Of a DNA stretch of 64,000 bases, positions 46,737-62,643 are shown in pieces. The DNA comes from Desulfosudis oleivorans Hxd3 (GTDB lineage: Bacteria; Desulfobacterota; Desulfobacteria; Desulfobacterales; Desulfosudaceae), in contig NC_009943.1 in the NCBI RefSeq assembly GCF_000018405.1, positions 809,001 to 873,000 on the forward strand, written 5' to 3'. The translations under genes were made by a program, and so were the position numbers. The notes beneath the pieces were generated by a model. It did no database searches. It was not told where the DNA came from and worked only from the letters and a program-made list of their open reading frames with translations. Positions within the stretch are counted from its first letter, which is position 1, and each line of letters starts with the position of its first letter.

Positions 46737-46919
46737 GGCCCCGCTCCCCGTCCGTTTTATCCGATATCGCCGTTCGGCCGCAAACTGCCTGATTATGGGG
46801 AAAAACCTGCGGAGTGTCAAGATTAAAGCCGGTCGGGCCGGCGTCACGCCAGGTATGAATCCGAACAAATCCGGTTTGAAGCTTAAGGCGTGGTTGTTTT
46901 GGCCGCACCGCAAAGACCA

Positions 46920-48158
46920 TCAGGCGACAAACGTTAAAGCCTCAATACGATCCAGCCGGAACGTCTGTTGTTTTTGCCGGGATTCGGAGAGTGCTTCCAC
47001 ACAGGTCACACTATCCTTGTAAAAAATGGAAACAGGGCGGATGAGGCAGCTTACCAGGCGTTGATCGTTTGCGCGGTAGTCAATTTTCAGAATCGCCCCG
47101 GTTTCGCATGCCTCTTTTACTGCCTGCTCTTTTTTTAATTCCCAGTCTATTCGATCCTGAATTCGAAGGTCGGCTTTTACCAGGGCCTCTTGCGCGTCGC
47201 CCCGTGCCTGCTGTCCCTGGTTAGCTGAATTGTCATACAACATGGCCATGGTTTCAATCGCCGCATGGCTTTTTTCATCCCAGTAGATCAGGCCGGCATC
47301 CACCAGCCTCCTCTGCTTGCCCACCCAGTCCCCATTGCCCGCTTTTGATTCACGAAGCATCAACTCGTAAAAGCAGGTACGGAAGAAAGGCTCATCATCC
47401 AGGCGTGTTGGCTCCAGGTCCAGTATATGCACCAGCCTGTGGATTTCCGTTTCGCACCACTGGCCGGCCAGTAACTCCTCAGTGGATTGGACCTCCTCGG
47501 TCTCTTCACCGCCGTAGGGCAGGTTCAGGCTGTGGTGAATCTCATGCAGCAGGGTCCGAAGCATGGAGTGCCATATCAGGCCGTGGATGGAAAAGCCCGA
47601 ATCAATCACAAGGGCCATCTGGGCCGCGTTTTCAAAATGGCGCAGCAGGTTGAAAATAACGGTGCCGCTTTTACGAATATAAACGCCCATCACCGGCAAT
47701 TCTCCCCGGCGCGGATAACCTTTGGCGCTAAAGGAGACGGTGCGAATTCGATGGCCTTGATATTGTTGCAGTATCTGGCCCATTACATGCAGAAAACGGC
47801 TGGAAACAAGTTCGGATTGCAGCATCTGCACGGGGGCGCTCGCTGAGCGCCGCTCCGCCTGGTGTTCCGTGGCCCCTTGTCGAGTCCGTGGCGGTATATG
47901 TGCGGCGTTCTCCTCCTCACCCCACAGGCTTCTCCGCCCGCAACAGATGTCGTCGACATACTGTTCGAAGGGCCTTAAGGGTTTTTGTCCATCCCTGCTT
48001 GATGGAACAACGTCTTCTTCATCTTCAAACGGATCATCAGGCCGATCCTCCTCTCTTATGATCCGGCGGCGTTCGTTTGCTTCTTCAGCCATTTCTTCGG
48101 CCATACCCAGAAAAAGACCCAGATTTTCCGGGCCGAAATCAAAACCATCAAAGCTCAT
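46920..48158 (-). CDS. Putative HEIHH zincin fused to a WYL-like domain (defence module gene C)
   Basis: 412 aa, not recognised as a named family. The N-terminal ~90 residues are acidic and probably disordered. In the middle, L-L-H-E-I-H-H-S-L-N-L contains HExxH (H205, E206, H209), a zinc-metallopeptidase motif, followed by an acidic stretch (E-E-T-E-E-V) that may hold the third ligand. The last ~60 residues (I-L-K-I-D-Y-R, then Q-T-F-R-L-D-R-I-E-A-L) resemble a WYL domain, a ligand-sensing fold common in defence loci. ATG 48158 has AGGAGG. It lies 30 bp after the 286-aa gene and likely shares a transcript with it and the NERD-helicase gene. Peptidase activity is inferred, not shown. Confidence 0.6.
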   Translation of the reverse strand: MSFDGFDFGPENLGLFLGMAEEMAEEANERRRIIREEDRPDDPFEDEEDVVPSSRDGQKPLRPFEQYVDDICCGRRSLWGEEENAAHIPPRTRQGATEHQAERRSASAPVQMLQSELVSSRFLHVMGQILQQYQGHRIRTVSFSAKGYPRRGELPVMGVYIRKSGTVIFNLLRHFENAAQMALVIDSGFSIHGLIWHSMLRTLLHEIHHSLNLPYGGEETEEVQSTEELLAGQWCETEIHRLVHILDLEPTRLDDEPFFRTCFYELMLRESKAGNGDWVGKQRRLVDAGLIYWDEKSHAAIETMAMLYDNSANQGQQARGDAQEALVKADLRIQDRIDWELKKEQAVKEACETGAILKIDYRANDQRLVSCLIRPVSIFYKDSVTCVEALSESRQKQQTFRLDRIEALTFVA

Positions 48159-48188
48159 TTTTGCCTCCTTTGGCCAGAACCGTTCTTT

Positions 48189-49049
48189 CTATTCCCATCC
48201 CTTTTTGGCGAGCTGCCGTTCAAATTCATTCAACACGGCCAGGTCCCGCATCATGGCTTTGTGTTCCGCGTCGCGCTTTTCCTGCCGGCGCTGCAGATTA
48301 AGGACATCCTGCCAGAACGCCTCCATTTCAGCAGGATCGGCGTGAAAGGAGGGCGCAATCGGGGGCCAGTCTTTGTTTCCCAGGTTCCCGGAAGTCCATT
48401 GGAAATACTCTCTTAAAAAAAAGAGGCCCATTTGCGGCAGAGACGCACCGATCTTGTGCATGATTTCTCTTTGTGCGGCGGCCCAGGGCACACCCGCTGC
48501 TTCCCATTCGGCCAGCTGGCGCTCCACAAGCGGGCCGAGAAACCGGTCCTTTTTCAGTGGCGGCGGCTCCACGTTGTAGTAACGACCGATAAAACTGAGC
48601 AGCTTGCCAGTGACCGGGTCGTTGGGCATGATGGACTGGAATCGGTTCAGGTCCGCCCTTATCCGGTTTTCGCTTTTTTCGCACATGACGGCAAAAAGCC
48701 GGAATATCGCTGTCAGATAGCCCAGCCAGAAACTGGCACGAAGGCTGAAGCAGTCTTGCTCGGGGTCCTGTACGCGAAGGCAGCTCTTCTCAAAAAGCGC
48801 ACGCAAAAAAAGCACCGCTTCTCCGGTTGTTTCGTCGAAGGATATACAGGTGTGATAAACCGGCGAGTCGGTAAACTCAAAGGACCGGATCGGGGGGGCC
48901 GGACAGATGTGCGCGGCCAGGTCCACGATGTTGACATACTTGTCCTCCACCAGAGAGGCGTTGACAATGGCAATTCGCCAGGATGCAGCCCCTGGTCCCG
49001 GCTGGATCGTGAGCACGCGATCCGCACGAGATTTGCGGTTCTCATTCAT
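48189..49049 (-). CDS. Unrecognised 286-aa protein (defence module gene B)
   Basis: I do not recognise this family. It is mostly soluble with a mixed alpha/beta N-terminal half (residues 1-110, hydrophobic strands V-L-T-I, I-A-I-V-N-A-S-L) and a helical, charged C-terminal half ending in a coiled-coil-like segment (R-R-Q-E-K-R-D-A-E-H-K-A). Two tryptophan-rich patches (P-W-A-A-A, Q-W-T-S-G-N) lie near residues 195 and 230. No catalytic motif, no signal peptide. ATG 49049 has GGAAGG upstream, 52 bp after the NERD-helicase stop; the next gene starts 30 bp later, so it is the middle gene of a three-gene operon. Confidence 0.55.
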   Translation of the reverse strand: MNENRKSRADRVLTIQPGPGAASWRIAIVNASLVEDKYVNIVDLAAHICPAPPIRSFEFTDSPVYHTCISFDETTGEAVLFLRALFEKSCLRVQDPEQDCFSLRASFWLGYLTAIFRLFAVMCEKSENRIRADLNRFQSIMPNDPVTGKLLSFIGRYYNVEPPPLKKDRFLGPLVERQLAEWEAAGVPWAAAQREIMHKIGASLPQMGLFFLREYFQWTSGNLGNKDWPPIAPSFHADPAEMEAFWQDVLNLQRRQEKRDAEHKAMMRDLAVLNEFERQLAKKGWE

Positions 49050-49101
49050 CGGTTATACCTTCCGTGTGGGATGTTGCACCGGCTTGCCGATGCCCCTACC
49101 G

Positions 49102-50997
49102 TTACTGTTCCAGGAAGTCCGGCCAGGAGGCACCGTATTCACGCAGCTCCGGCGCGCACGACACCACCGTCAAAAAACTGCCGCGCACATGCCGCTTCAG
49201 GCGGGTCAACCCCGTGTAGACCAGGGCCAGTGCCCGGTGGTTGTCCGCGGTGTTGATCAGCACCACCATGGCCCGCGATTCCCACCCCTTGAAGCTGTGC
49301 AGGGTGGTGGCCTTGACGCGCGCGTCGCCCATGAAAAACCCCATCTTTTTTCTCCGGCACGCCTGGCTGTCGTCGTCAAACGTATCCACGCACGCTATAT
49401 TGTATTGGCCCTTCAGGTGCGCGACCACCGCCATACCCGATTTCTGGCTGGGGGCCAGAAAAGTGATATCCGTCATGGCCAGCAGCTCCGGATCCGCGGC
49501 CGGGGCCATGGCCAGAATTTCCCGCAGGCACGCCGCTTCGGCCCGGGCGCTGTCTGTTTGAACCCATTTCAGGTTGCAGGGGTAGATGTCCAGTTCGCCC
49601 TGGGCTTTTTCAGGCAGGTCGATCAGGTCGGGGTCCAGAAACCGGCTGGCAAATTCCCGGGCGTATTGCACGGCCTTGGGCGGCAGACGGTAACTGGTTG
49701 CAAGCCGCACCCAGTCGCCTCTGAAACCGGCGCCGTGCATGGCCTCCTCGGTCCATACACGGGCCGTTCCGTATATGTCCTGGGTGGCGTCCGCCACCAG
49801 CAGCTTTTCACCGCCCTGGCGACACACCTTTCTTAACAGGTTCCACCATTTCAGTTGAAAGTCCTGGGCCTCATCCAGTAAAACCGCGTCGTAGATCGTG
49901 TCCGGATGGCCCAGGTTTCGGCTGATGATCCGGTCCACAAGGTCGGGGATACGATGATCCATGATTTCTTTCAACCCGTTGTTCTTTTTGTCCGGCTCTC
50001 TCCGTTCTGCCGAACGGATCTCGGCAAAAAGGTTGTCGTACTCCTTTTTGAAGCCGGCCTGTATACACACCCGCTTGCACCAGGCGTGAAAATTCAGCCA
50101 CGTGATGCTCCCCCGGCCCTCGCCGTTTCGGTGACAGCGGGCCGCCAGGTCCCGAAGGTAGTGCGGCAGGGTGATGGTGTAGTTGACCACCAGCACGTCC
50201 TTGCCCTCGTTGGCCAGTTCCACTGCCCGGGCCGCCAGCACCAGGGACTTGCCCGACCCAGCCGGGCCCTTGATGCGGCGGTATCCGGTATCGGTCCGCG
50301 ACGTGACAAGGTTGTTCTGGTTTTTGTCCATATCCAGCGGCTCCCGTTGCGCAAGGGCAAAGTCGGGTTCAACCAGCCAGCTCCTTAAGTCCCTGGCCAG
50401 GGTTTCATTCATGATTTTTGAGAGACCCCGGTTGTGCTCGGGAAAAACCTGGTCAATCCGGCCGCCGTCAATGGCCTCCATGCCCGTCACCGGATGGCGG
50501 CCGGGGTATTGCACGATCTCGCGGTGGCGGCGCAGCCACGGTTCGAAAAACTCCCGCACCCGCCGATCGCCGGTGGAAGGAAAGATCAGGCCGGCGGTCA
50601 TCACGGCCCGTCCGGCCCGCTGGTCCAGGCGGGGACAGTAGAGGTCAAAGATTTCCTGCTTGTAGTGAAGAATTTTTTCAACCGGGTTTGCCTGTTCAAT
50701 GGCGCGCCACTCTCCATGGTCGTTTACCATCAGCACGGGCGTGCCGTCCTCCCGTTTTTGGACCTGGTAGGCCGCGTCATTCAGGCTCCAGTCTTTTACC
50801 TCGAACACGGCGACCCCGATCCGGGGATGCAGCAGCACAAAGTCGGGCCGCAATCCGTTTAAGTGGGGTTGAACGTAGATTTCCCATTCGGGCGCAAGCC
50901 GGGCGTTAAAAAAATCAAACACCCGCCGTTCGCCCGAAGTCAGTGGGTGAGGCAGGCTGTCGAGTTCGTTGACCGGCGGTGAAACACGTCGCGGCAT
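49102..50997 (-). CDS. NERD-nuclease/UvrD-like SF1 helicase (defence module gene A)
   Basis: 631 aa. Residues about 20-150 form a NERD nuclease domain with the PD-(D/E)xK pattern D52 ... E66-V-K68. The rest is a superfamily 1 helicase: Walker A G-P-A-G-S-G-K (244-250), Walker B D-E-A-Q-D (375-379), motif IV Y-R-L-P, motif V H-S-F-K-G-W-E and motif VI Y-T-G-L-T-R-L. This is the architecture of Nhi-type NERD-helicase phage defence proteins, though Nhi works alone. Start ATG 50997 has GGAGG. It is the first gene of a minus-strand set directly downstream of the CRISPR array. Confidence 0.85.
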   Translation of the reverse strand: MPRRVSPPVNELDSLPHPLTSGERRVFDFFNARLAPEWEIYVQPHLNGLRPDFVLLHPRIGVAVFEVKDWSLNDAAYQVQKREDGTPVLMVNDHGEWRAIEQANPVEKILHYKQEIFDLYCPRLDQRAGRAVMTAGLIFPSTGDRRVREFFEPWLRRHREIVQYPGRHPVTGMEAIDGGRIDQVFPEHNRGLSKIMNETLARDLRSWLVEPDFALAQREPLDMDKNQNNLVTSRTDTGYRRIKGPAGSGKSLVLAARAVELANEGKDVLVVNYTITLPHYLRDLAARCHRNGEGRGSITWLNFHAWCKRVCIQAGFKKEYDNLFAEIRSAERREPDKKNNGLKEIMDHRIPDLVDRIISRNLGHPDTIYDAVLLDEAQDFQLKWWNLLRKVCRQGGEKLLVADATQDIYGTARVWTEEAMHGAGFRGDWVRLATSYRLPPKAVQYAREFASRFLDPDLIDLPEKAQGELDIYPCNLKWVQTDSARAEAACLREILAMAPAADPELLAMTDITFLAPSQKSGMAVVAHLKGQYNIACVDTFDDDSQACRRKKMGFFMGDARVKATTLHSFKGWESRAMVVLINTADNHRALALVYTGLTRLKRHVRGSFLTVVSCAPELREYGASWPDFLEQ

Positions 50998-51152: not shown

Positions 51153-52365
51153 GCCGCAATCCATTCTAAAAATGGGTCTTTTCTTTCCGCCACGCCGGGA
51201 GCGCCGCACCCCAGTGCGGCACCCCCGGGTCCCAATCCCCTCTAACAGCGGGTCTCTTCCTTCGATTTACGGTATCGCCAACAGCTACGGTGAAGGGTCA
51301 AGGTCGCAATCCCCTCTAACAGCGGGTCTCTTCCTTCGTTTTGGCGGAACATTCACAACCGTCCTGGCCGGGTCGCAATCCCCTCTAACAGCGGGTCTCT
51401 TCCTTCCATGACTACAACATCAAGTAATTATGCTGAGATTCCCAAGTCGCAATCCCCTCTAACAGCGGGTCTCTTCCTTCGCGACACTAACAACGCGGAA
51501 ATGAAGGCTGCAAAGGCCAAGTCGCAATCCCCTCTAACAGCGGGTCTCTTCCTTCCAGTTAGAAGAAAAGATGGCCAAGGCAGCTGAGGCTGAGGTCGCA
51601 ATCCCCTCTAACAGCGGGTCTCTTCCTTCTTTTTATTAATCAATAAAAATGGAGGTTTGAGACATGACGTCGCAATCCCCTCTAACAGCGGGTCTCTTCC
51701 TTCACGGTCAGCCGATTCAGATTCAGAAGACCTCGTTCACCAGTCGCAATCCCCTCTAACAGCGGGTCTCTTCCTTCGATTTCCCATTCATGAGGGACAG
51801 AACGTCATCATACGTTCGTCGCAATCCCCTCTAACAGCGGGTCTCTTCCTTCTGGTTATCGATGGTGTTGAATATAAATTGGTAAGAAAAGTCGCAATCC
51901 CCTCTAACAGCGGGTCTCTTCCTTCGGACTTTCCACGAAGTACTGAACACAAAAGATTTGTCGCAATCCCCTCTAACAGCGGGTCTCTTCCTTCCTTACC
52001 AGGATTTATTTCAAGAGGCCTGTGTTGCATACGTCGCAATCCCCTCTAACAGCGGGTCTCTTCCTTCTGGGAAAATATTAAGAAAAGATCAGACTACGAA
52101 CTATTTTTTGTCGCAATCCCCTCTAACAGCGGGTCTCTTCCTTCATTGCCGATTACCTGTCATATAACCTTACTGCGATTCAGTCGCAATCCCCTCTAAC
52201 AGCGGGTCTCTTCCTTCAGAGCTTTGAGGTAGGCGATAAGGTCTGCTGGTGTGGGTCGCAATCCCCTCTAACAGCGGGTCTCTTCCTTCTTTATATCCTT
52301 CCTTCCCTAAATACTCTCTAATGTATTTTAGTCGCAATCCCCTCTAACAGCGGGTCTCTTCCTTC
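51153..52365 (-). CRISPR. CRISPR array, type III-A locus (17 repeats including one decayed, 16 spacers)
   Basis: Sixteen copies of a 35-nt repeat lie between 51229 and 52365; on the plus strand each begins GTCGCAATCCCC and ends GGTCTCTTCCTTC. Only the 51229 copy has one change. A decayed copy at 51153-51187 (27 of 35 identical) lies 41 nt further out. Spacers are 34-42 nt. Read on the minus strand the repeat ends GGGGATTGCGAC, like the usual ...ATTGAAAC ends, so the crRNA 5' tag would be AUUGCGAC. Decay at the low-coordinate end and cas genes on the other side both put the leader at 52366-52663. The array is transcribed on the minus strand, like the cas genes. Confidence 0.97.
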
Positions 52366-52663: not shown

Positions 52664-53950
52664 TCAAAAAACAACGACCGGAAACCGGGGCACGTCCGAG
52701 ACCTGAAAGATGTTTAACGACACAATAAAATCCCGCAGGGACATGTACGCCGCTTCCCTGGCCGACCGGAATCCGTGGGCCAGAAACGAGTGGTTCCGGG
52801 AATCCTGTATTTTTAGAAACGAGTCCTTTTGGTCATAAAACTGAAGACCCAGGTCGTCGCCCATCTCTTTTAGCAGGCTATACCCGGCTGCCATGGAAAT
52901 CTTGATGGTTTTGCTTTCCGGATCCATGTACTTTTCTTCATAAATGGATTTCAGGCCGGCCGGCAGTTTTTCCGGCGCCGCGTTTGACGTGTCGATGCCG
53001 TTTGTGTCCATCAGCCGCTGCTGGCCCGCCATTTCCACGATGCGATAAAGGCGGAGCACGGCGTCATCGGTTTTGCCTTCGTCAAACCGGCGTTCGGCAT
53101 TGGCAAACAGGTCCAGGATGTATGCCGGGCATGGTTTTTCTCCGCATCCGGCGGCATCCGCAAGGAACGGCAGCAGTGCCTTTGCGGCTTTGGCGAACGC
53201 CTGGACGCCTTTATTCTCATCATCCAGCAGCTCGTCTATTTCGCATTTTTCAAAACGCCGAACAGCGGTTTTGTGACGCAGCAAATCCCATTCATGAAAG
53301 CCTTCGATCATCAGCCCGATTTTCTTGTACACAAGTCTCCGGTTGACGTTTTTTTCAGCCAGGTCCGCGCAAAGCTGGCCGGCCGCCTTGAACTGGTGGC
53401 GGTTAAACAGCAATGCGATTTTCTTTCGTTCCTCCACGGCCAGAAAATCCCAGGGGTTGACGCTTTGAAACACCTTTTCGGCCCCGTTTTCCACGGTGCC
53501 CACGTTCCCCCTGGTGCGGCGGGTTCCGCCCACATAGGAGAAAGAAAACCCGTGGGTGATGGCCGCAAGCGACAGGGCAACCGACATGTTCTTGGTGCCG
53601 CCGGTGTAATCCACAATGACGCTGTCCCGGCTGTGGCCCCGGCCGATGACGCGGGCCACGGCCTCCTCGGCCTTTTTGTGGCAGTGCAGCAGGTCGTTGA
53701 CGTTTTCAGCCAGGGTGACCTCGCTTTGCAACTCAAGGCCGGCGGCCTTTATCGCGCCTTTAATCTCCATTACCTTGTCCAGGGTCTCTTGAGAGGCGAA
53801 AAAGGAGACAAATACCGGCCGAAAGTGGCGGATGGACTCGATCACCGGCGCGGGCGTGCCGCCCACGGAAACGATCATGGCCCCTGCGGCCCCGTCGCTG
53901 TTCGGTTTGTTCATTTGCAAAAAATCCCTGTTTTGTGGATTTGCTGTCAT
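52664..53950 (-). CDS. Cas02710-family CARF-HEPN ribonuclease (Csm6-like)
   Basis: 428 aa. N-terminal CARF (cyclic-oligoadenylate sensor) with S-V-G-G-T-P-A-P-V after the first strand and D-Y-T-G-G-T-K (114-120), the family signature. The C-terminal part is a HEPN domain with R-N-H-S-F-L-A-H (R385, H392, R-x6-H), the catalytic dyad of HEPN RNases. It resembles the TIGR02710 family used instead of Csm6 in some type III loci: cOA made by Cas10 would switch on non-specific RNA cleavage. Start at 53950 is 27 bp after csm5; an in-frame Met at 53914 is an alternative. Confidence 0.85.
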   Translation of the reverse strand: MTANPQNRDFLQMNKPNSDGAAGAMIVSVGGTPAPVIESIRHFRPVFVSFFASQETLDKVMEIKGAIKAAGLELQSEVTLAENVNDLLHCHKKAEEAVARVIGRGHSRDSVIVDYTGGTKNMSVALSLAAITHGFSFSYVGGTRRTRGNVGTVENGAEKVFQSVNPWDFLAVEERKKIALLFNRHQFKAAGQLCADLAEKNVNRRLVYKKIGLMIEGFHEWDLLRHKTAVRRFEKCEIDELLDDENKGVQAFAKAAKALLPFLADAAGCGEKPCPAYILDLFANAERRFDEGKTDDAVLRLYRIVEMAGQQRLMDTNGIDTSNAAPEKLPAGLKSIYEEKYMDPESKTIKISMAAGYSLLKEMGDDLGLQFYDQKDSFLKIQDSRNHSFLAHGFRSAREAAYMSLRDFIVSLNIFQVSDVPRFPVVVF

Positions 53951-53977
53951 ATGGCCGACCCTTGAATCTTTGACTCG

Positions 53978-55153
53978 TCAATAACGGCTTACGCCCTGCT
54001 CCTGGTCAAGGGTCAGTATCAGCCAGCCAAAGGGCATGGCGGGCTGGCCGTTTTCCATGGTGCAGCGCGTCCGGGTGGAGCCTTGGGTGATGGGCTCTCT
54101 TTTTTTCGCGTGCCAGCCCTGCCGCAATTCATCGACCGACAGGGACTCAAAATGGGAGAAATGGCCGACCCGGATTAACATGCGGCGGTTGACGTATTCG
54201 CGATGGTCCCAAACGTCGACCGATGGATTGATGCTGATCGTTTGCCCGTTATCCAGTTGCCCCAGAGGAAAAAGTTTCTCAATGGCCTTCCAGGAGGTAT
54301 CGTCGGCTTCTTTGTTGTCAAAGCGGGCTGCTTCGTCAATCATCCTGGCCCAGTAAAACCGGTTGCAGGCGTCCATGATCAGATCAATATTTAGTTCTCT
54401 GCCCAGGTTCTCTTTCACGCCGGGACGTTTCATTGCCTTGCTGTCAAGGCGTATGGAGACAGTAAACTCAGGCGGGGTTGCCGCGTCGGCCTTTGATTGG
54501 ACCCGCTCGACCCACATCTGAATGCCCTTTGCCCCGGAATTCTCGGCCCAGTCGATGCGGGTGGAATTGTCCGGAAGTTCGGCGTCCGACACGTGAATGA
54601 GCCGGAAAACATCCTTGTGCGTTTCGCTTTTGCGACAGTTGAGAGCCGTTTCCTCCAGAGCCACGCATTTTTTCTTTATGTCGCGTTCGGCCTGGACTTT
54701 TTGGTGAACAGAGGGCCGGGTGTTTGCGTCGATGTTGGCAAAATAATTCACCACCGCCGTTCGTATCGCGCCTTTGATGGAAGAACCAGGGACATAAACA
54801 CTGCCGGTGTGGGGGTTGCGCGGCATCATGGAAACGATAAACCGGTTGTTTGGATTGGATGCCTTGGCCGTATATTCTTTTATGAAAGCATCGGACGCGT
54901 CTATGGTGTTCATGGCATGACGCTGGATATCCAGATGATGCCCAAGAAAATTTTGCATTTCCTTCAGGTCGGCCCGGTCGGCAAAGGCGGCAAACCGGGT
55001 CTTTTCTTCTGGAGAAAGGTCTTTAATAACCCGTGCGGTATTGAATTGCACCAGCGTTTCATCCTTGATCAGGAATTCGGTGGGGTCGATTTCACAGCCG
55101 CAGCCGATGTGAATGGGTGTCAGTGCCTGGGCCTTGAAGTGATATGTGGTCAT
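53978..55153 (-). CDS. csm5: Csm5, type III-A RAMP protein (Cas7-like)
   Basis: 391 aa. RAMP-fold subunit near the 3' end of the crRNA in the Csm complex. Typical features: L-T-P-I-H-I-G-C-G near the N-terminus, V-P-G-S-S-I-K-G-A-I-R-T near residue 125 and the C-terminal G-S-T-R-T-R and P-F-G-W. The gene start overlaps the csm4 stop by four bases, so the two are translationally coupled. Confidence 0.9.
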   Translation of the reverse strand: MTTYHFKAQALTPIHIGCGCEIDPTEFLIKDETLVQFNTARVIKDLSPEEKTRFAAFADRADLKEMQNFLGHHLDIQRHAMNTIDASDAFIKEYTAKASNPNNRFIVSMMPRNPHTGSVYVPGSSIKGAIRTAVVNYFANIDANTRPSVHQKVQAERDIKKKCVALEETALNCRKSETHKDVFRLIHVSDAELPDNSTRIDWAENSGAKGIQMWVERVQSKADAATPPEFTVSIRLDSKAMKRPGVKENLGRELNIDLIMDACNRFYWARMIDEAARFDNKEADDTSWKAIEKLFPLGQLDNGQTISINPSVDVWDHREYVNRRMLIRVGHFSHFESLSVDELRQGWHAKKREPITQGSTRTRCTMENGQPAMPFGWLILTLDQEQGVSRY

Positions 55154-56082
55154 GGCGTCACCTCCGTAAAATAGGTGGGCAGGTGAAAAGCATAGTGTCG
55201 GATGAAGCCGAGGCTTTCGTCATGGTGGACCTTTCCCAGCAGTTTTCCAAAGGGCGGATCCCCAGCCGGGTCGAAGGTGGCGCCGGGCCGGGCCATGAGA
55301 ATCGGGTATTTAAAGGGACTGCGGCCGCCTGTAGCAAAATGGCCACCCAGTTTGCCATAGTGGGTGTGGAGCTTGTACCTGGGGTTTTGCATCGCCGGGG
55401 TGATGACACCGTGGGAAAGGCTCATGGCCCGATTGCCCGTGCCGGCAAACAGCGCTGTTTCTTCTTTGATTTCGAAGCTAAAACTTCCCCGGCCGGTGCT
55501 GGCATTGGCCCCGAATCCGGACTGGCCAATAAAGGCAAGCGAACTTTCCAGTCGCTTCCGGCAAGCCGGGTCGGCGGCCGCGAAAATTTGGAACCGCTGA
55601 TTTTCTCCCGGCCACTTGATGTTTTCCACGAACAGGCCGCCGGCATCCGGGGTGCGGCCGGAGTTCCGGTCAATGCAATTGTGAAAAAGATGGCCTGATT
55701 CCAGTCCACTGTGGTTCTCGGGGGTGATTTTTTTCAGCCCCTCCAGCAGGGCTGGCTCATTTAACTGATCCCGGAGGGAAAGAAAGAGGCGTTCTGGAAT
55801 ATAGGCTGTCTTAGCGACATTTTTGCTGAGGCTGAACGCTTCCAGGGAGGGTTTCCCGCCTTTTTTCGCGGCCGGCGGCAGCAATGGCAGGGGCAGCATG
55901 TTTTCCGGTATCCGGCTGGAAAAGAGCCAGGGAGAGGACTCCTGCTCCCTCATCCATTGAGCAAGGGCCGATTCGCCTTCGAGATATCGAATGGCCCAGG
56001 CCATGTGCCCCCAGATCGTTCCGGACACCCATTCCGTGGTCAGCGGGCCTGACGGCGTGATGATGATGCGAAAGTAAGCCAT
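55150..56082 (-). CDS. csm4: Csm4, type III-A RAMP protein (Cas5-like)
   Basis: 310 aa. Cas5-family subunit that grips the 5' tag of the crRNA and contacts Cas10. Recognisable by the glycine-rich loop near S-G-T-I-W-G-H (about 20-26), the G-F-G-A-N-A-S-T-G-R-G segment and the C-terminal H-Y-G-K-L-G-G-H-F-A-T. Two bases separate it from csm3, and it overlaps csm5. Confidence 0.88.
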   Translation of the reverse strand: MAYFRIIITPSGPLTTEWVSGTIWGHMAWAIRYLEGESALAQWMREQESSPWLFSSRIPENMLPLPLLPPAAKKGGKPSLEAFSLSKNVAKTAYIPERLFLSLRDQLNEPALLEGLKKITPENHSGLESGHLFHNCIDRNSGRTPDAGGLFVENIKWPGENQRFQIFAAADPACRKRLESSLAFIGQSGFGANASTGRGSFSFEIKEETALFAGTGNRAMSLSHGVITPAMQNPRYKLHTHYGKLGGHFATGGRSPFKYPILMARPGATFDPAGDPPFGKLLGKVHHDESLGFIRHYAFHLPTYFTEVTP

Positions 56083-56084
56083 AA

Positions 56085-56813
56085 TTACGCGACCTTTTGT
56101 TGTTTAATCAGTTTAGAGACGTCGATGGATTCAAACTTTGCCTGAATGTCCTGGCCGTCTTTTTTGAGCTTGTCAAAACGGATGCGGCCATAACCGCGGG
56201 AGCCTGAGCCGCCCAGGGCATCCTGTTCCAGCAGGCGCATAATCGCAAACAGGTTGTCCAGATTATCCACATCGGTCCGGCCTTCATCGTTCGTGTCAAA
56301 AATCCGGTAGACCATCTCAAAGTCAAAAAGCGAGCCGGCCGGCACCCGTTCTGTCTTGCGGATACCAGGGCCAGCCTTACCCTGAATCCGGTCGATGTTG
56401 TTTTCAAATTTTTCCTCGGTCAAAGGGAGCCCCCGGTCGATGATCCGCTCTTTCCATTCCTTATTCAGGCAGGCGTCCCGGACGATCAGCCGGGTGGGGC
56501 CGGCATCCCAGTTTTTGCTGGTGGTGCCGAAGATCCGGAGAATGGGGTCTGCCGCCAGTTTGTCCGGGCCGGTCTCGCCGCCGCCTTCCCAGGTTTTGCC
56601 CGAGTCTTCCACACACCCGGTGACCCACTCCATCAGGCACCGCAGTTTTCCTTTGAGTGACGAGCCCGGGATATAAGGCTCGCCGGTATAGGGGTTTTTA
56701 ACGACCGGATTGTCAACGCCGCCGATTTCAACGGCGTCCTTGCCGGCGCCGATGTGAAGTCCGGTCAGTATTTCTATCTGGCCAGTTATCAAGTAAGAGG
56801 TGGTCAGCTTCAT
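56085..56813 (-). CDS. csm3: Csm3, backbone RNase of the type III-A complex (Cas7)
   Basis: 242 aa. Repeated backbone subunit that cuts target RNA every six nucleotides. The catalytic aspartate is present (Asp34 in I-G-G-V-D-N-P-V-V), followed by P-Y-I-P-G-S-S-L-K-G-K-L-R and the C-terminal glycine-rich G-G-S-G-S-R-G-Y-G-R-I. So the complex should be able to cleave target RNA. 20 bp after csm2. Confidence 0.95.
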   Translation of the reverse strand: MKLTTSYLITGQIEILTGLHIGAGKDAVEIGGVDNPVVKNPYTGEPYIPGSSLKGKLRCLMEWVTGCVEDSGKTWEGGGETGPDKLAADPILRIFGTTSKNWDAGPTRLIVRDACLNKEWKERIIDRGLPLTEEKFENNIDRIQGKAGPGIRKTERVPAGSLFDFEMVYRIFDTNDEGRTDVDNLDNLFAIMRLLEQDALGGSGSRGYGRIRFDKLKKDGQDIQAKFESIDVSKLIKQQKVA

Positions 56814-56833
56814 GGTCGAACTCTCCTTTTACG

Positions 56834-57328
56834 TTATTTTTCCGGTGAATAAAACTTGTGAAAGGCCACCACGGCTTCAAACACTTTTAAAAATCCTTTA
56901 AAATCGGCCAGGTCTTTGATGGAAGCCACGTGGTCAAAAATGAACTGGGTAAAGGCCCTGGGTGCTACTTTTCGTTTTTCCGCGTAAACCGCCTTGGCCT
57001 TGAACATGACGATCAACGCCCGGTCCCGTTCGAAATTGGCCTGCTGCTCCTGAAGGTCCCCCGACATGATTTTTCGTTCAATGGCTTTCAAATCATCATA
57101 GAAACGCCGCATCTGGGTCGCCTTCAAGCCTTTAAAATTTTCGGCGTCAGTTCTCGCCTGGTCATCCAGCAGTTCGGGCTTCAGTCGCTTTTTTTTCTCA
57201 TCCGAATAGTAGCTCAACGGTTTTGGCGTTGGCAATTGCGGGGGCGGGCTCTGGCTGCCATAGGTCGGGCGGCCCGCGCCCTGCTGACCATGAGGTTTGT
57301 ATCCTGAATGTCTGTTGGGTTGTACCAT
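56834..57328 (-). CDS. csm2: Csm2, small subunit of the type III-A complex (Cas11)
   Basis: 164 aa, longer than common Csm2 because of a disordered Gly/Pro/Gln-rich N-terminal ~50 residues (P-N-R-H-S-G-Y-K-P-H-G). The helical core (R-R-F-Y-D-D-L-K-A, R-A-F-T-Q-F-I-F-D-H-V) is the Csm2 part. Lies between cas10 and csm3, its usual place. Confidence 0.85.
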   Translation of the reverse strand: MVQPNRHSGYKPHGQQGAGRPTYGSQSPPPQLPTPKPLSYYSDEKKKRLKPELLDDQARTDAENFKGLKATQMRRFYDDLKAIERKIMSGDLQEQQANFERDRALIVMFKAKAVYAEKRKVAPRAFTQFIFDHVASIKDLADFKGFLKVFEAVVAFHKFYSPEK

Positions 57329-57346
57329 GGCTCCTCCTTTGTGATG

Positions 57347-59884
57347 TTATTTCCGGTTTCTATATAAAGCGATGGTGATCGGCAGCCGCCACCCGGTGAT
57401 GCCGGGTTCATTGGCAACCGTGTGAAACATATTGTCCAGGCCCAGCCGCTTGAGCCATTCGGCTATGCTTCGGGCTTTTTCGTCCTTTTTGCCGGGAACA
57501 TTGCGGGCTAAATGATAGGCCAGCTTGGCCCGCCAGCCGGCCTTGCTCACATCACCTTTAGCCACTTCTTCCGCGTCTCCGGCGAGGGTGAGAATTTGAT
57601 AGACAAAGCCCGTGCCGACCTTCTGTTTCCCCTGCATCCGGTCATGAATCCATTGGGCGCTATCAAGGGTCTGGCTAAATTGTGGCCATATCATGGGGGC
57701 GCCGGTGTAGGGGCAGATTCTGTCTTTGGTTTCCGGGTCGTGCTGTTTGGCCCTTTCGAGAAGCTCCTCTGCCTCGCCTACGGCCCGGTTTACCGGGTAG
57801 TTGGCGTGCAGAAGGGAAAGCCCGGCGGAAATCGTGAGGTTGGGGTTGTTGCCGGTATAGGCGCCGAAGGATTCCCGCATCCGTTTGGCAAGATGGTGCA
57901 TCTGGCGCCAGGGCCCGATGAGCAGCAGGTCGTCGCCGCCGGCGTAAATCGTGTAGGTGTCCGGGAAGTCGTTTTTGATGACCCCCTGAAGATAGCCGGT
58001 GAAATAAAGGTCCATCATTCGTGAAAGCTGGGCCAGGCGGGAAAGGGTGAAACGGCTCTTCTGTTGATCCTCGCGCTTCAAGCCATAACTGAAAACATAT
58101 CCGAGAAAGTCCACGTCCGCTTTTAACAGGCCGAGAAAAGGCTTGCCCCGGTAGTCGTTGTCTTCATGGCTGAACTCTTTTGCCTCGGCGCCGATATGGG
58201 CAAAGGTTTTGGGCATGCCGTGGAAATACTGGTTATCTTCTTTTGGAACTCCGTCATACTTCGGATCCTGAAGGTCACGTTCGTCAGAAAACCTGGGAAT
58301 ATGGTTGGCCAGAATGCGCCAAGCCCAAGGAGCCTTATCGCTTTCCGGCTTCAGTCTGCGGATGGAAACGGCTGTATCCGGCCTGACGCCGGTCGGTTCC
58401 TGTTTCAATAAAAAGAGATGCAAACCCAGCACGGGAATGGCGTTTTTGTCTTCGGTTTCACCTTTTTCCCAGACCAGGTGGTTGGCACTGGTAAGGCGGC
58501 GGCCAAGTTCGAATTCTTTCTGGCATGTGCGGCAACGGTATTCATCTTCACTGTGATCCTCGGCCAGCCTGACGCCGCAGGTGGAGCAGGCTTTGTCGTA
58601 TCGAAATTCACGTTTGATGACGCCCTGTTGGCAGGCGCCGAGCGACCGGTGTTTGGCGTTTTCGACGGCAAGGGCCAGGTCGGCCATGATGCCGTGAAGT
58701 CCGTTGGACTTGAAGGACTGGCCGGGGAAGCAGGGACTGGCGGCCAGGTGGAAGGCCAGGCTGCCGGTGTAGTTTTCCAGCAGCCATTGATCAATGTCGC
58801 GCTGGAGCGATTCCATCCGCTGTTCCATGTCAGGCGTGACGGGCGCGAGAATCAGAAACCGCCCTCCTGCCTGTTGGATGATGCATGACAGGGGCAGGGA
58901 AAACGTTTCCAATGTCTCCAGCGCGGCGGCCTCGGTGATGGCGGAAAGCATAAAGGACCTTGCTCGCAGAATTTTGCTCACGCCCTTTACGCCCTGACTT
59001 TCCAGCGTGAATAGCGTGGACTGAAGGCCGGAAAGGTCGCCGGCAATAAACTGGAATTTTGGGAGAGACTCGTTTTTTACAGCCTCCGGGTTTTCAAGCT
59101 CGCCTTTTTCCTCATGATAGCGGTAGAGACAGGCTGCGATGGCCGCCGTGGTCCGTGAGTGGTCGAACAGGGATATATCGGGGATGTCCATGGTGCTGGA
59201 GGGGATGGCCCAGGTGTGCCTTTCCAGAAGGCCAAGGAGTACCTCCTCAAAAAGCCGGGGCGAAAGCTCTGGCATATCCTTGATTTTTTGAAATTCCTGA
59301 ATCCATAATTCCGTAACCGCCTTATAATTTTCGGGAAGCGATGGGCTTTCCCCGGTCCAGGGCAGGGGGATCAAGGCCGCTGGGGCATGGGGATTGAGAA
59401 CAGACAGAGTATAAGCGTTTTTTGTCGGCGCCGGTCGCTTGGGATCAATGACAATTTCATCGAAAACAGATTGCAGGGGCAAGCGCCTGTAAGTTTCCCT
59501 GGACGAAGTCTCTTCCTCCTCCTCGTCTTTTTCTCTTCTGTCCATGCCGGAAGAGTATCTGTCGGCCAGGGCGATCATCCAGGCCATGGCTTTTTCCGGA
59601 GCTTTATCTGGCGCATGATGGAAACTCGCGGCATCGGCGACGTGTTTCAGCACGGTGCCATCTGGAAACGAAATTTTCCGCTGTTCAATCCAGTCAAAAA
59701 AAGCATTGGTGAACAGGACATGCTTGTGCGTGTATGCCTGGTGCTTGTTCTTGGGGCAGAGTGTTGACTCCATATCATAGGTTACCCATGGAACGGCTTT
59801 CATGGAGCCATATGCCCGCTGACACATTTTCCCGACGTCATGCAGCAGCGCGCCAAAAATTACTTCGTAAATCGAATATGCCAT
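57347..59884 (-). CDS. csm1: Cas10/Csm1, type III-A large subunit with HD and GGDD
   Basis: 845 aa. N-terminal HD domain with H15-D16 (L-L-H-D-V-G-K), the single-stranded DNase of Cas10. In the middle there is a zinc ribbon C433-x2-C436 / C451-x2-C454. The second palm domain carries G649-G650-D651-D652, the active site for cyclic-oligoadenylate synthesis. Both activities therefore look intact. Starts 11 bp after the APE2256-type CARF gene and leads the csm operon. Confidence 0.95.
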   Translation of the reverse strand: MAYSIYEVIFGALLHDVGKMCQRAYGSMKAVPWVTYDMESTLCPKNKHQAYTHKHVLFTNAFFDWIEQRKISFPDGTVLKHVADAASFHHAPDKAPEKAMAWMIALADRYSSGMDRREKDEEEEETSSRETYRRLPLQSVFDEIVIDPKRPAPTKNAYTLSVLNPHAPAALIPLPWTGESPSLPENYKAVTELWIQEFQKIKDMPELSPRLFEEVLLGLLERHTWAIPSSTMDIPDISLFDHSRTTAAIAACLYRYHEEKGELENPEAVKNESLPKFQFIAGDLSGLQSTLFTLESQGVKGVSKILRARSFMLSAITEAAALETLETFSLPLSCIIQQAGGRFLILAPVTPDMEQRMESLQRDIDQWLLENYTGSLAFHLAASPCFPGQSFKSNGLHGIMADLALAVENAKHRSLGACQQGVIKREFRYDKACSTCGVRLAEDHSEDEYRCRTCQKEFELGRRLTSANHLVWEKGETEDKNAIPVLGLHLFLLKQEPTGVRPDTAVSIRRLKPESDKAPWAWRILANHIPRFSDERDLQDPKYDGVPKEDNQYFHGMPKTFAHIGAEAKEFSHEDNDYRGKPFLGLLKADVDFLGYVFSYGLKREDQQKSRFTLSRLAQLSRMMDLYFTGYLQGVIKNDFPDTYTIYAGGDDLLLIGPWRQMHHLAKRMRESFGAYTGNNPNLTISAGLSLLHANYPVNRAVGEAEELLERAKQHDPETKDRICPYTGAPMIWPQFSQTLDSAQWIHDRMQGKQKVGTGFVYQILTLAGDAEEVAKGDVSKAGWRAKLAYHLARNVPGKKDEKARSIAEWLKRLGLDNMFHTVANEPGITGWRLPITIALYRNRK

Positions 59885-59895
59885 GACTCCTCCTT

Positions 59896-61002
59896 TTAAA
59901 CAAACCGGCTCGACAGGTCGGCGATGACGGCATCCCGCTGGTCGGCAGTTTTTGCCGTGGTTACGATGTCAAATTTGGTTGTGGCATGCCCGTCGCTGAA
60001 GCTGCCTTCCACCTGGCAGAAGTCTCCTTTGGCCGAGGGGCGGAAATAGTTTTTCAGCGGAAGACTGTAGTGGTGATAATGGGTGTATATCCGCTTCACA
60101 TAGGGCGCCCCGCAAAGTTTTTTCAGCCAGGGCTCAAGGCCGGAATGTCGGCCTTTATTGCTGTCTTCGTATTTAATGACCTTTGCATCGGGCGCGATGC
60201 CCGCATCCGGCGGCAAAAGGCGGCCGCGTTGCTGCTGGAACCGGAAGCAGAACATTTCGTGAAAGAGCTGGCCCGTGGCCGAAAGGCCGACCAGCCGGGT
60301 GTTGTCCACCTCTATTTCGTCTATCAGTCCGGCGAAACGGGGGTCGGCATCGGCGGGATTTTTGTCGAGGCCGTCGCCGGCAAGGTCGAAAAACAGGGAC
60401 GCGTTTGCCAGCCAGAACCCCAGATCGAGTGAAATGGGCTGGGGCGGAAGGGCAATAACCTCGGAAAATTTTTCAAACAGGTAGCAGACCGGGATTTCCA
60501 GGGCCTGGCCGATCATGCCGGCAAACGATATCTGGGCCTTGTACCCGCCCGTGGCGTTGATGAGCACCGATTCGGCCCCGTGTCTTTTAACGATTTCGGC
60601 AATGGCTTTCACCAAGTTGCGCAAGCCCTTGGTCCTGAAGTCGAAGACTGAGCGGTCGGAAAGCCCTTCAAGGGTGACGGTTTCAACCTTGTCAAACCGC
60701 CGGGGGTTCTTGCTGTTTTCGTAGTACGCCTTGAGTATCCGGCCGGTGAGGGCGCCATCTTCGGTGTCGGAAACCAGCAAATAAAGGGCGTTTCTCTGGT
60801 CAAGCAGACCTTTTTCCAGAATGCCGGTGATGGAGTTGATTTCCGCACCGTTGAGCCGGTCGGCCGGGTCTATAACGGAAAGCTCGGACACTATGCCTTG
60901 AACATTGGCCGAACCGATCCATTCCTTGAGTTTTTCATCGGGCGCGTGGGCCAGGTTCTTCTTCAGACTGGTGCCCACAGTACAGACAAGGACATGTTTC
61001 AT
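59896..61002 (-). CDS. APE2256-family CARF protein with uncharacterised C-terminal domain
   Basis: 368 aa from ATG 61002 (AAGGA five bases upstream; an extension to 61125 has no CARF similarity). N-terminal CARF domain with T-V-G-T-S (8-12) and N-A-T-G-G-Y-K (149-155), the ligand-binding signature of the Cas_APE2256 family. Residues about 190-280 may be a winged-helix-type linker; residues about 283-368 are a small basic domain with Tyr/His clusters (Y-T-H-Y-H-H-Y) and V-T-T-A-K-T that I cannot place. CARF-RelE mRNA interferases (Cami1 type) have about this size, so a RelE-like toxin is one possibility. It is the first gene of the cas10 transcript. Confidence 0.75.
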   Translation of the reverse strand: MKHVLVCTVGTSLKKNLAHAPDEKLKEWIGSANVQGIVSELSVIDPADRLNGAEINSITGILEKGLLDQRNALYLLVSDTEDGALTGRILKAYYENSKNPRRFDKVETVTLEGLSDRSVFDFRTKGLRNLVKAIAEIVKRHGAESVLINATGGYKAQISFAGMIGQALEIPVCYLFEKFSEVIALPPQPISLDLGFWLANASLFFDLAGDGLDKNPADADPRFAGLIDEIEVDNTRLVGLSATGQLFHEMFCFRFQQQRGRLLPPDAGIAPDAKVIKYEDSNKGRHSGLEPWLKKLCGAPYVKRIYTHYHHYSLPLKNYFRPSAKGDFCQVEGSFSDGHATTKFDIVTTAKTADQRDAVIADLSSRFV

Positions 61003-61281
61003 GTGATTCCTTTCATTCCGGTGCTCAGCATATCGCCGCCTGTCCGGCCGGGCAACCCTGGCAACGTTGCCGGTGTTCGTTGGTTTCCATCCATAAATGG
61101 CCTTTTCCCGCAATCTCTGGGTCAAACGGCGGGCTTCCTTGTGCGGCGTACGACAGTAGGCCTTCAGTCAGCCCTTGTTCCCCTTGATCTTGCGAAAAAG
61201 TTCTCATTTCTGGATTGGAAACCTTTGTCGTGTCCCCATAATCACTGGATGGACACTCGTTAATTTGTTCGGTGAAGCGAT

Positions 61282-61309
61282 AATCTATGCCGATACTCCA
61301 AACTGTCAC
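61282..61309 (-). promoter_or_regulatory. Candidate promoter of the cas10-csm operon
   Basis: On the minus strand, -35 GTGACA (61304-61309), 16-bp spacer, -10 TAGATT (61282-61287). The -35 box lies inside the downstream copy of a 17-bp direct repeat, so a bound regulator would directly affect transcription. The 5' leader to the CARF start would be about 270 nt. Confidence 0.45.
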
Positions 61310-61342
61310 AAATAATTTGACACTGACTCCAAATTATCACAA
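61295..61342 (-). repeat. Pair of 17-bp direct repeats overlapping the promoter
   Basis: On the minus strand TTGTGATAATTTGGAGT (61342-61326) and TTGTGACAGTTTGGAGT (61311-61295), 15 of 17 identical, 31 bp apart start to start, close to three helical turns. Arranged like binding sites for a dimeric or tandem regulator. Confidence 0.55.
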
Positions 61343-61438
61343 CCGATCGTTCCGGCATCACCATTCTTCCGTGACGGGTGTTTTGTCAATTGTTCTGGGA
61401 TGGCCAGATCATCTGACCCGGTCCGGCTCCATAGCCTT

Positions 61439-62563
61439 TCAATAAACGATTTCAATTTTCCCCTTGTCCATCTGAATGCCGTATCGGGTGTCAGGCCGCC
61501 TGCCTTTGGAGGCGATTTCCAGCTCTTTTAAGGCGTATGGCCCGAATCTGTTCTGCAGGACGGCTTTGATTTTTGATTTAAGCGAGTTGAAGCGCTCGGC
61601 GTCAAGGTTCATGATGCCGGTCTTGCTCATCTCTTCGACAGGGCGGGTGCCGCAAAGACGTTTGTAAATATCCGCAATAACCAAACCCTGGTTCAGAATT
61701 GCGGGTAAATCCAGGAAACACTCATGGCAGTCGCCGCAGGTGATCGAATTTTTGCGGCAGTCTTTTTTGCGCATGGCGAAAAAGGCATAGAGGGCCATCT
61801 GGGCCGGCGTCAGGTCCAGCTCCATCCTTTTATATATGATTTTTTTGTCCACAAGGTTGACCGTCAGCCGGGGCGTTTCTTCCCGGATCAGGGAAAGCAG
61901 AAGCGCGCCCGGTGGTTTGGACGCCTTGAGAACATCTTTTGACAGCGAGTCCCGAATAGAAACAAATGGAACCGATATAAGATTGATCTCGGCGTACCGG
62001 GTGTCCTTGTAATACGCTTGTCCGTTTTTGGCCTTGAGGGCGATGGTTTTCGATTCCTTCGGGGGATAGAAGAATTCCCGGCTGCTTTCAAAGTCGGGGG
62101 ACACCAGCACATGATAAAGCCTGTCCTGGGGCCGGCCGTAAAACTGGGCCGCCAGGGTGAGGCAGGCGCTCATGGTCTTGCGGCCCCCGGCAATGGAAAA
62201 GAAAACCGCCGTGTCCGGGTCCTTTGTAAGCTCAAAGGCCATGCCCAGGCACAGGGCCAGAAGCCGTTCGTTGTCGGCTTCGGTGAGAATGTCCGGGCGC
62301 TCCACGCCGTGGGTATCGGCGACGACGTGAACATGGGTATGGTCAAAGGCGATGGTTTCCGGATTGATGCCGTACTCGTTCAGGTAGCGATGATAGCGGC
62401 CGTCTTCACCGGCCAGAAGATCGGAGAAAATTCTGTCTTTGCCCTCCCGGGTGGTGATGACATGAATGGCGTGGACCTCCCGTCCGCTCTGGTGAAGGAC
62501 GTAGAGGGTCTCTGTGATCACCTGGGGGCTTAAGCCCGTTACCGCCAGAATAATGTTTTTCAT
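61439..62563 (-). CDS. NE0113-family CARF protein with winged-helix and four-cysteine cluster
   Basis: 374 aa from ATG 62563, where the protein starts M-K-N-I-I-L-A-V-T-G-L-S-P-Q-V as its family does; ATGs at 62587 and 62632 are in-frame alternatives. CARF domain with A-V-T-G-L-S-P-Q and S-I-A-G-G-R-K-T. The C-terminal part looks like a winged helix (L-T-P-A-Q-M-A-L-Y-A-F-F-A-M-R) with C269, C276, C279 and C282, a possible metal site. Such CARF-wHTH proteins may be transcription regulators controlled by cyclic nucleotides. 80 bp after cas6. Confidence 0.78.
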   Translation of the reverse strand: MKNIILAVTGLSPQVITETLYVLHQSGREVHAIHVITTREGKDRIFSDLLAGEDGRYHRYLNEYGINPETIAFDHTHVHVVADTHGVERPDILTEADNERLLALCLGMAFELTKDPDTAVFFSIAGGRKTMSACLTLAAQFYGRPQDRLYHVLVSPDFESSREFFYPPKESKTIALKAKNGQAYYKDTRYAEINLISVPFVSIRDSLSKDVLKASKPPGALLLSLIREETPRLTVNLVDKKIIYKRMELDLTPAQMALYAFFAMRKKDCRKNSITCGDCHECFLDLPAILNQGLVIADIYKRLCGTRPVEEMSKTGIMNLDAERFNSLKSKIKAVLQNRFGPYALKELEIASKGRRPDTRYGIQMDKGKIEIVY

Positions 62564-62643
62564 GGTTTTCTGTTTTCCGGAAGCCATTTTCGGTCGGCGG
62601 CCTTTTCCGGTCAATTTTGGAAACGTTGCCATGTCTCTCTGTT

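What the first reader, a model, noticed from the sequence alone, without database searches (positions are those of the whole stretch)
46920..50997. Three-gene NERD-helicase / 286-aa / zincin-WYL module as a candidate new defence system
Seen: three minus-strand genes, 30-52 bp apart, directly downstream of a type III-A CRISPR array: a NERD-nuclease/SF1 helicase, an unrecognised 286-aa protein, and a protein with HEIHH and a WYL-like C-terminus. Known: NERD-helicase (Nhi) and WYL proteins are each tied to phage defence, but I know of no described system made of this trio. Inference: the helicase-nuclease detects or cuts foreign nucleic acid, the 286-aa protein may couple it to the zincin, and the WYL part senses a ligand.
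Basis: partly seen in the sequence, partly recalled or inferred. Interest (0 to 1): 0.78.

Follow-up and report, generated by a model that had tools for sequence, protein, structure and literature searches.

The report
Helicase-coupled protease with dead twin
Next to a CRISPR array in a bacterium sit three genes: a DNA helicase-nuclease, a predicted zinc protease with a tail of a kind known to sense DNA, and, between them, a diverged copy of that protease that has lost its active site; in two related genomes a relative of the protease sits beside a different helicase, which hints at a helicase-triggered protease that may act in phage defence.

Summary
The three minus-strand genes are real and placed as described. 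The trio is not a conserved module: it was found only in this genome, and the NERD-helicase's relatives on plasmids and viral contigs (20 loci scanned) stand without the other two. Following the zincin gave something better. (1) The 'unrecognised' 286-aa protein is a diverged paralogue of its neighbour's zincin domain, with the catalytic positions replaced (H205>R117, E206>L118, H209>V121, E228>N135): a pseudoprotease. (2) The zincin-WYL protein belongs to a very rare family (three genomes found) and lies next to a DNA helicase in all three, but of different superfamilies: SF1 NERD-UvrD here, a Hel308/HamB-like SF2 helicase in the other two, both of one genus, whose loci share only this pair. 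(3) The WYL domain keeps the two arginines that, by spacing, match those PafB needs for ssDNA binding, but not the WYL tyrosine. Best reading: a helicase-coupled, ssDNA-gated metalloprotease with a pseudoprotease partner, working by the logic of Hachiman (sensor helicase, held-back effector) or PprI (ssDNA-sensing protease). Protease activity, gating and defence are inferred, not shown.

The parts
49102..50997 (-). NERD nuclease + UvrD-like SF1 helicase, 631 aa; PADLOC family C3a187
   Evidence: PDLC01087, 914.5 bits, full length; D52, E66, K68, the Walker A GxxGK and DE.Q invariant in an alignment of 8 sequences
48189..49049 (-). 286-aa pseudo-zincin: paralogue of the zincin domain of the 412-aa protein, without HExxH and without a WYL domain
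46920..48158 (-). 412-aa zincin (HEIHH 205-209; E228 as likely third ligand, inferred) with a C-terminal WYL domain (346-409)
51229..52365 (-). CRISPR array, 16 repeats of 35 nt; minus strand as the reading strand is inferred from the repeat's end and the one imperfect repeat at 51229
52664..63585 (-). type III-A effector genes: Csm6 (TIGR02710), Csm5, Csm4, Csm3, Csm2, Csm1/Cas10 (GGDD at 649), an APE2256-type and an NE0113-type protein, Cas6
46792..46842 (-). terminator-like hairpin (46842-46828) and promoter-like site (46820-46792) between the trio and the GGDEF gene; consensus matches only
   Evidence: 11 terminator-like sites found against 10.5 expected; promoter-like 5 against 2.6

Best explanation
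A helicase-coupled, WYL-gated metalloprotease unit with a pseudoprotease partner, carried as cargo beside a type III-A CRISPR array. Shown by sequence: the anatomy, the paralogy and the loss of the catalytic residues in the 286-aa protein, and the repeated neighbourhood of the zincin-WYL protein with a DNA helicase. Inferred: the NERD-helicase unwinds and trims foreign or damaged DNA; the single-stranded products bind the WYL domain of the 412-aa protein; this releases its zincin domain, which the 286-aa pseudoprotease holds (as a heterodimer partner) or steers to a substrate; the protease then cuts a host or phage protein, as PprI cuts DdrO in answer to ssDNA, with the helicase in the part that HamB plays for its effector HamA. 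The likely outcome is anti-phage or anti-plasmid defence.
For: 286-aa protein = dead zincin: blastp with the G090 zincin 26% over 178 aa, E 2e-12 for the single comparison; an HMM built from three zincins without it gives 36.7 bits, against 5.2 for the best of 2000 shuffles; the zincin profile A3, which does not contain it, finds it in the window's whole genome at E 6.8e-10; catalytic positions replaced; same order of secondary structure elements in the two models; the 50 rows listed in the structural re-alignment are, by title and chain length, metallohydrolases, Z 4.8-6.2. Helicase link: 3 of 3 zincin-WYL genomes; the Hel308-like helicase is in 2 of 218 order genomes at E 1e-40, the same two that have the zincin; of the two loci only that pair is shared among ORFs of 80 aa or more. 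WYL fold: Z 13.1 PafBC, 12.3 BrxR, 12.0 CapW with ssDNA, 11.0 DriD with ssDNA; R401/R404 have the spacing of PafB R211/R214, needed for ssDNA binding. Gating precedents: PprI (title and start of abstract), HamAB (passages). Shine-Dalgarno-like AGGAGG before the 412- and 631-aa genes. G070 and G111 have rpoA-rplQ-GGDEF without the trio, which fits an acquired block.
Against: The trio is seen once. The two other zincin loci are in one genus, so they are not independent, and the G090 contig ends 482 bp beyond the helicase. Their C-termini are WYL-like by alignment only: G090 scores 15.1 bits, under the Pfam cut-off of 21.8, G030 has no match. The 286- and 412-aa proteins do not match each other directly (E 0.26). 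The WYL tyrosine needed in PafB (Y196) is cysteine in the 412-aa protein by a weak alignment (E 0.8), and G030 has H for the second arginine. The NERD-helicase stands without a zincin in all 20 plasmid and viral loci scanned, so it can probably work alone. Foldseek itself gave no match at E 0.001 or better for the 286-aa model and its list mixes zincins with unrelated folds; Z below 8 is modest, and the model was built with zincins in the alignment. The zincin fold of the 412-aa model was barely tested. No substrate is known; no assay was run.
Confidence: 0.4

Rival explanations
1. Accidental neighbours: a solo NERD-helicase defence gene landed upstream of an independent pseudo-zincin/zincin-WYL pair in a defence island; the helicase does not work with them.
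For: None of 17 NERD-helicase loci at 33-55% identity (9 plasmid, 8 viral) has a zincin or 286-aa relative by HMM, and the settings vary (SIR2-HerA, type I restriction, CRISPR genes). GC3 differs: 0.755 for the helicase, 0.672 and 0.584 for the other two.
Against: Same strand, 52 and 30 bp apart, and the zincin-WYL protein is beside a helicase also in the two other genomes. Of the 17 loci, four viral ones (L036-L039) share their neighbours and are near copies, and several contigs are short.
Confidence: 0.3
2. DNA repair rather than defence: a helicase and a protease that clear DNA-protein crosslinks or stalled complexes, in the manner of SPRTN/Wss1-type proteases (recalled).
For: WYL domains and the PprI protease answer DNA damage; the helicase in G030/G090 is nearest to Hel308-type DNA helicases (all under the curated cut-offs).
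Against: Patchy presence (3 of 389 order genomes), the CRISPR setting, the kept NERD motif and the plasmid and viral carriage of helicase relatives fit defence better.
Confidence: 0.15
3. Type III CRISPR accessory: the protease is switched on by the cyclic oligoadenylate made by Cas10, with the WYL domain as receptor, like the SAVED-gated protease CalpL.
For: Array 231 bp away on the same strand; Cas10 has GGDD; PADLOC holds the helicase family as C3a187 (that C3a means type III accessory is recalled); two of nine plasmid relatives read lie beside CRISPR genes.
Against: No CARF or SAVED match in the trio; G030, with the same zincin family, has no Csm1 match; the ligand-bound WYL structures listed hold ssDNA.
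Confidence: 0.12

Closest known systems
Hachiman (HamA nuclease + HamB Ski2/Hel308-like sensor helicase)
   Same: A DNA helicase paired with a separate effector; the helicase in G030 scores with HamB models (best E 4.5e-29)
   Different: The partner is a zincin-WYL protein, not the DUF1837 nuclease HamA; in the window the helicase is SF1 NERD-UvrD
PprI/IrrE-DdrO of Deinococcus
   Same: A metalloprotease answering ssDNA (proposed here; title and start of abstract, for PprI)
   Different: No M78 match of the 412-aa protein in Pfam at E 1, a WYL domain instead, and no DdrO-like gene in the trio
Nhi (NERD-helicase) and PADLOC C3a187
   Same: NERD nuclease fused to an SF1 helicase (for Nhi recalled); C3a187 matches over the whole length
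   Different: Nhi model only E 0.0017; the helicase here has two further genes in its apparent operon
WYL regulators PafBC, CapW, BrxR, DriD
   Same: WYL fold, Z 9.3-13.1; the FRLDR arginines
   Different: These are transcription factors; here the WYL domain is attached to a zincin

Membership tests
WYL domain (PF13280) | Pfam score over the curated cut-off | tested here: met
   34.8 bits against 21.8 for the 412-aa protein; G090 C-terminus 15.1 bits, below it; G030 none
Zincin metallopeptidase (412-aa protein) | HExxH plus a downstream acidic ligand, conserved in the family | tested here: met
   H205, E206, H209, E228 kept in the three zincin-WYL proteins; fold and activity not tested
Zincin metallopeptidase (286-aa protein) | HExxH motif | tested here: not met
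   R117, L118, V121, N135 at the catalytic positions although homologous: a pseudoenzyme
PADLOC C3a187 (NERD+UvrD) | full-length match to PDLC01087 | tested here: met
   914.5 bits, 1-559 of 559
Nhi | strong match to the Nhi model | tested here: not met
   best Nhi model shown: E 0.0017, 15.1 bits, 45 residues (25 of 27 families are shown)
Hachiman | HamA (DUF1837) beside HamB | tested here: not met
   no HamA match for the 286- and 412-aa proteins and no HamB among the families shown for the helicase; in G030/G090 neighbours other than the pair were not tested
PprI/IrrE (M78) | Peptidase_M78 match | tested here: inconclusive
   no Pfam M78 hit at E 1; IrrE and PprI are only weak Foldseek matches of the 286-aa model, E 0.62 and 1.1
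cOA-gated type III effector | CARF or SAVED domain | tested here: not met
   no such match in Pfam, NCBIfam or PADLOC for the three proteins

The most novel reading that the evidence does not exclude
A new kind of helicase-triggered immunity in which the released effector is not a nuclease but an ssDNA-gated metalloprotease; one zincin-WYL family has swapped partner helicases (HamB/Hel308-like SF2 or NERD-SF1), and in the window genome it acquired a dead twin that holds or aims it.
Probability: 0.3. Interest if true: 0.8.

Novelty: new variant of a known kind. Interest (0 to 1): 0.58.

Why it matters
Hachiman shows a sensor helicase that frees a nuclease; a protease as the output, read out through a WYL domain, would join two separately known ideas (Hachiman, PprI) and make the ligand of a WYL domain outside transcription factors directly testable. 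The active/dead protease pair gives a simple mutational test of regulation by a pseudoenzyme in bacteria.

Tried and rejected
Trio as a widespread system: rejected, no second trio. Direct similarity of the 286- and 412-aa proteins by pairwise BLAST: not seen (best E 0.26); the link shows only through the G090/G030 zincins and the profile. Homologues of the 286-aa protein in genome contigs (46 pattern matches, none confirmed), viral contigs (7, none) and plasmids (none): none, but the pattern scans are blind to distant relatives, and the phage collection was not searched with it. The 412-aa protein in plasmids and phages: none; its profiles in viral contigs: 319 and 31 pattern matches, none confirmed; the G090 zincin in plasmids: none. 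The A1 profile in 345 phylum genomes gave, besides the true own-genome match, a 50-residue own-genome hit to the acidic N-terminus (22.5 bits) and one hit in G314 to a C-terminal stretch (19.8 bits, E 5.1e-4); both were left out as weak partial hits and not followed. Sequence match of the A3 zincin profile with PDB chains: one row, E 0.74, a ribosomal protein. The list for the 412-aa model is filled by its WYL domain and by Sm/Hfq-like barrels, so its zincin fold was barely tested. Other HExxH proteins near NERD-helicases (L031, L008) are not of this family by HMM. GGDEF gene as a fourth member: rejected, it keeps its place beside rplQ in G070 and G111 without the trio. PHROGs was not searched.
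Full report
Anatomy. The three ORFs lie at 49102-50997, 48189-49049 and 46920-48158 on the minus strand, 52 and 30 bp apart, the first 231 bp from a CRISPR array of 16 repeats at 51229-52365. Upstream on the same strand are Csm6 (TIGR02710), Csm5, Csm4, Csm3, Csm2, Csm1, an APE2256-type and an NE0113-type protein and Cas6. AGGAGG lies just before the 412- and 631-aa genes. Downstream, a GGDEF gene (45693-46913 as listed; by reading, its start is probably at 46736) follows after a promoter-like site that matches 11 of 12 consensus bases. In the two same-family genomes examined, G070 and G111, rpoA, rplQ and the GGDEF gene are adjacent, while neither the trio nor the eight type III proteins used as queries matched in the 10.0 and 7.4 kb read. 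This fits an acquired block that does not include the GGDEF gene. The window's genome is a single contig of 3,944,167 bases; from that size I would guess Desulfosudis oleivorans Hxd3, but this is recalled and untested.

The helicase. It matches PADLOC C3a187 (NERD+UvrD) over its full length with 914.5 bits, so the family was already on a list of defence-linked proteins; the founding paper as I recall it was not held. Among order genomes the family is in 6 of 146 at E 1e-40, but apart from the window's own copy these are only 22-25% identical; as a protein query it is in 1 of 192 class genomes at E 1e-30, the own one. Closer relatives are on plasmids (24 records matched; the first eight rows 45-51% identical, three more rows 33-39%, the rest of those shown about 24%) and viral contigs (8 of 11 loci at 44-55%, 3 at 21-22%), none in 50,697 phage records. 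I read the surroundings of 9 of the 24 plasmid records and all 11 viral loci. Settings include type III-A csm genes (Deinococcus aquaticus), cas1-cas2 and a RAMP gene (Euhalothece), SIR2-HerA (Rhodovastum) and type I restriction genes (Acinetobacter). One plasmid copy (Methylorubrum) is annotated as two genes. None of the 20 loci has a zincin or 286-aa relative by HMM (best E 1.5 in 891 frames; best E 0.34 in 608 ORFs). Limits: L036-L039 are near copies with the same neighbours, and some contigs are short. An alignment of eight sequences keeps the NERD and helicase motifs. The helicase looks like a mobile, mostly solo defence gene.

The zincin-WYL protein. Pfam, NCBIfam and PADLOC name nothing but its WYL domain (PHROGs not searched). 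A search of 58 relatives with the part upstream of the WYL domain (319 aa) found 2 with a match, the own genome and G030 (29%, E 1e-24); 389 order genomes gave 3, adding G090; 291 class genomes gave the same 3; the scan of genome contigs gave the same two outside the window (27 pattern matches, 2 confirmed; the records are titled Desulfobacterales bacterium and Desulfatibacillum sp.). The A1 profile in a 345-genome phylum sample found the own genome and one weak partial hit in G314. The family keeps HExxH and a downstream ExxAxxW. In both G030 and G090 the next gene is an SF2 helicase, 65% identical between them, with best NCBIfam matches to ATP-dependent DNA helicases of the Hel308 kind, all under the curated cut-offs, and best PADLOC matches to HamB. 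In G090 its likely ATG is 16 bp after the zincin stop; in G030 the two candidate ATGs overlap the stop slightly or follow closely. That helicase is in 2 of 218 order genomes at E 1e-40, exactly these two. Comparing the two loci, only the pair and frames overlapping it are shared, though on the helicase side the G090 contig ends after 482 bp. G030 has no Csm1 match. Relatives of this helicase were in 3 plasmid records; two lie beside dpdA, and the zincin profiles gave nothing convincing there (one hit of 6.9 bits, E 0.0076 in that small set, to a cut ORF of L056, was not followed).

The 286-aa protein. Pfam, NCBIfam and PADLOC found nothing. tblastn against the G090 locus matched it to the zincin, 26% over 178 aa, E 3.5e-11; blastp gave E 2e-12. 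With G030 the composition-adjusted pair comparison is weak (E 0.002), a database-style blastp stronger (53 bits, E 4.6e-9). With its own neighbour, the 412-aa protein, it is not significant (E 0.26). An HMM of the three zincins without it scored it at 36.7 bits (E 2.8e-10); the best of 2000 shuffles scored 5.2, and the best of the other window frames, the zincin itself apart, 4.7. The A3 profile picked it out of the window's whole genome at E 6.8e-10. At the catalytic positions it has R117, L118, V121 and N135 in place of H, E, H and E. AlphaFold2 models (mean pLDDT 62 and 70, four-sequence alignments) share the order strand-helix-three strands-two helices, and both have a long helix after the zincin part; the WYL barrel is absent from the 286-aa protein. 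Foldseek gave no match at E 0.001 for it; its list, E 0.5 and up, mixes M1 peptidases, IrrE, PprI and selecase with unrelated folds. In the re-alignment of 723 Foldseek candidates the 50 rows listed are, by title and chain length, metallohydrolases (M1 aminopeptidases, YbeY, collagenase, selecase and others), Z 4.8-6.2. Z below 8 is modest and the model was made with zincins in its alignment, so this only agrees with the sequence evidence. It occurs in 1 of 345 phylum genomes.

The WYL domain. Residues 334-412 align with PafBC (Z 13.1), BrxR (12.3), CapW with ssDNA (12.0) and DriD with ssDNA (11.0); Sm/Hfq-type barrels follow at about 9. In the passages that I read, a PafBC variant with both arginine pairs changed (PafB R211/R214, PafC R201/R204) no longer binds ssDNA; the PafB pair alone abolishes binding, the PafC pair does not, and PafB R181A and Y196A also lose it (PMC11804915). 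The FRLDR of the 412-aa protein (R401, R404) has that spacing and lines up with FRLDR of A. aurescens PafBC in a weak alignment (E 0.8); that this is the R211/R214 pair is inferred. G090 has RIDR, G030 RLDH. By the same alignment the tyrosine is replaced by cysteine and the R181 position is not arginine. The case for ssDNA as ligand is thus half supported by residues.

Mechanism. HamB, which its authors liken to Hel308, constrains and frees a separate effector (PMC12278908, passages). PprI is a metalloprotease that senses ssDNA and cleaves DdrO (PMC10904395, title and start of abstract). The zincin-WYL protein stands beside a HamB-like helicase in two genomes and near a helicase-nuclease here, and carries a WYL domain. 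The economical reading is that the helicase makes or exposes ssDNA, the WYL domain reads it, and the zincin is the output; the dead paralogue is a partner that restrains or aims it. Each of these steps is inference. A defence role rests on the neighbourhood, the patchy presence and the mobility of helicase relatives, not on an assay.

Literature. WYL fusions named in the passage seen of Makarova et al. 2014 (PMC4012209) are nucleases, helicases and others, no peptidase. Searches for NERD with WYL and accessory or metalloprotease terms, NERD-helicase with defence or type III terms, WYL with zincin or metallopeptidase and WYL domain with ssDNA and metalloprotease, each seen as listings, and passages of PMC12839542, PMC12458937, PMC11229360, PMC5512222, PMC10952713 and PMC7159879 showed no such trio or pair. 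The library holds open-licence papers only, so this is not proof of absence.

Noticed in passing
L031:4459-5757 (Sphingomonas sp. gentR plasmid): A 432-aa protein with HEARH upstream of a NERD-helicase relative on the same strand; not related to the window zincin by HMM and without a Pfam match.
   Followed up: partly
L033:7987-8850 (Euhalothece plasmid): A 287-aa protein without Pfam match directly downstream of a NERD-helicase near cas1-cas2; not a relative of the 286-aa protein by HMM.
   Followed up: partly
L008:2342-3298 (G083): A 318-aa protein with HExxH and a sub-threshold M78/IrrE match two genes upstream of a distant NERD-helicase.
   Followed up: partly
window 52664-53950, 59896-61125, 61439-62632: The type III-A locus has three candidate cOA-linked proteins (TIGR02710 Csm6, APE2256-type, NE0113-type Csm6) and Cas10 with GGDD. 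No cas1 or cas2 was among the 13 window ORFs scanned or 7 of 29 ORFs of the stretch that follows (L053).
   Followed up: partly
L057, L058 (Nostoc and Picosynechococcus plasmids): Plasmid relatives of the Hel308-like helicase lie in clusters with dpdA.
   Followed up: no
L036-L042 (IMG/VR contigs): NERD-helicases 44-55% identical to the window's are carried on contigs classed as viral, without the zincin or 286-aa gene; whether these are true phages was not tested.
   Followed up: no
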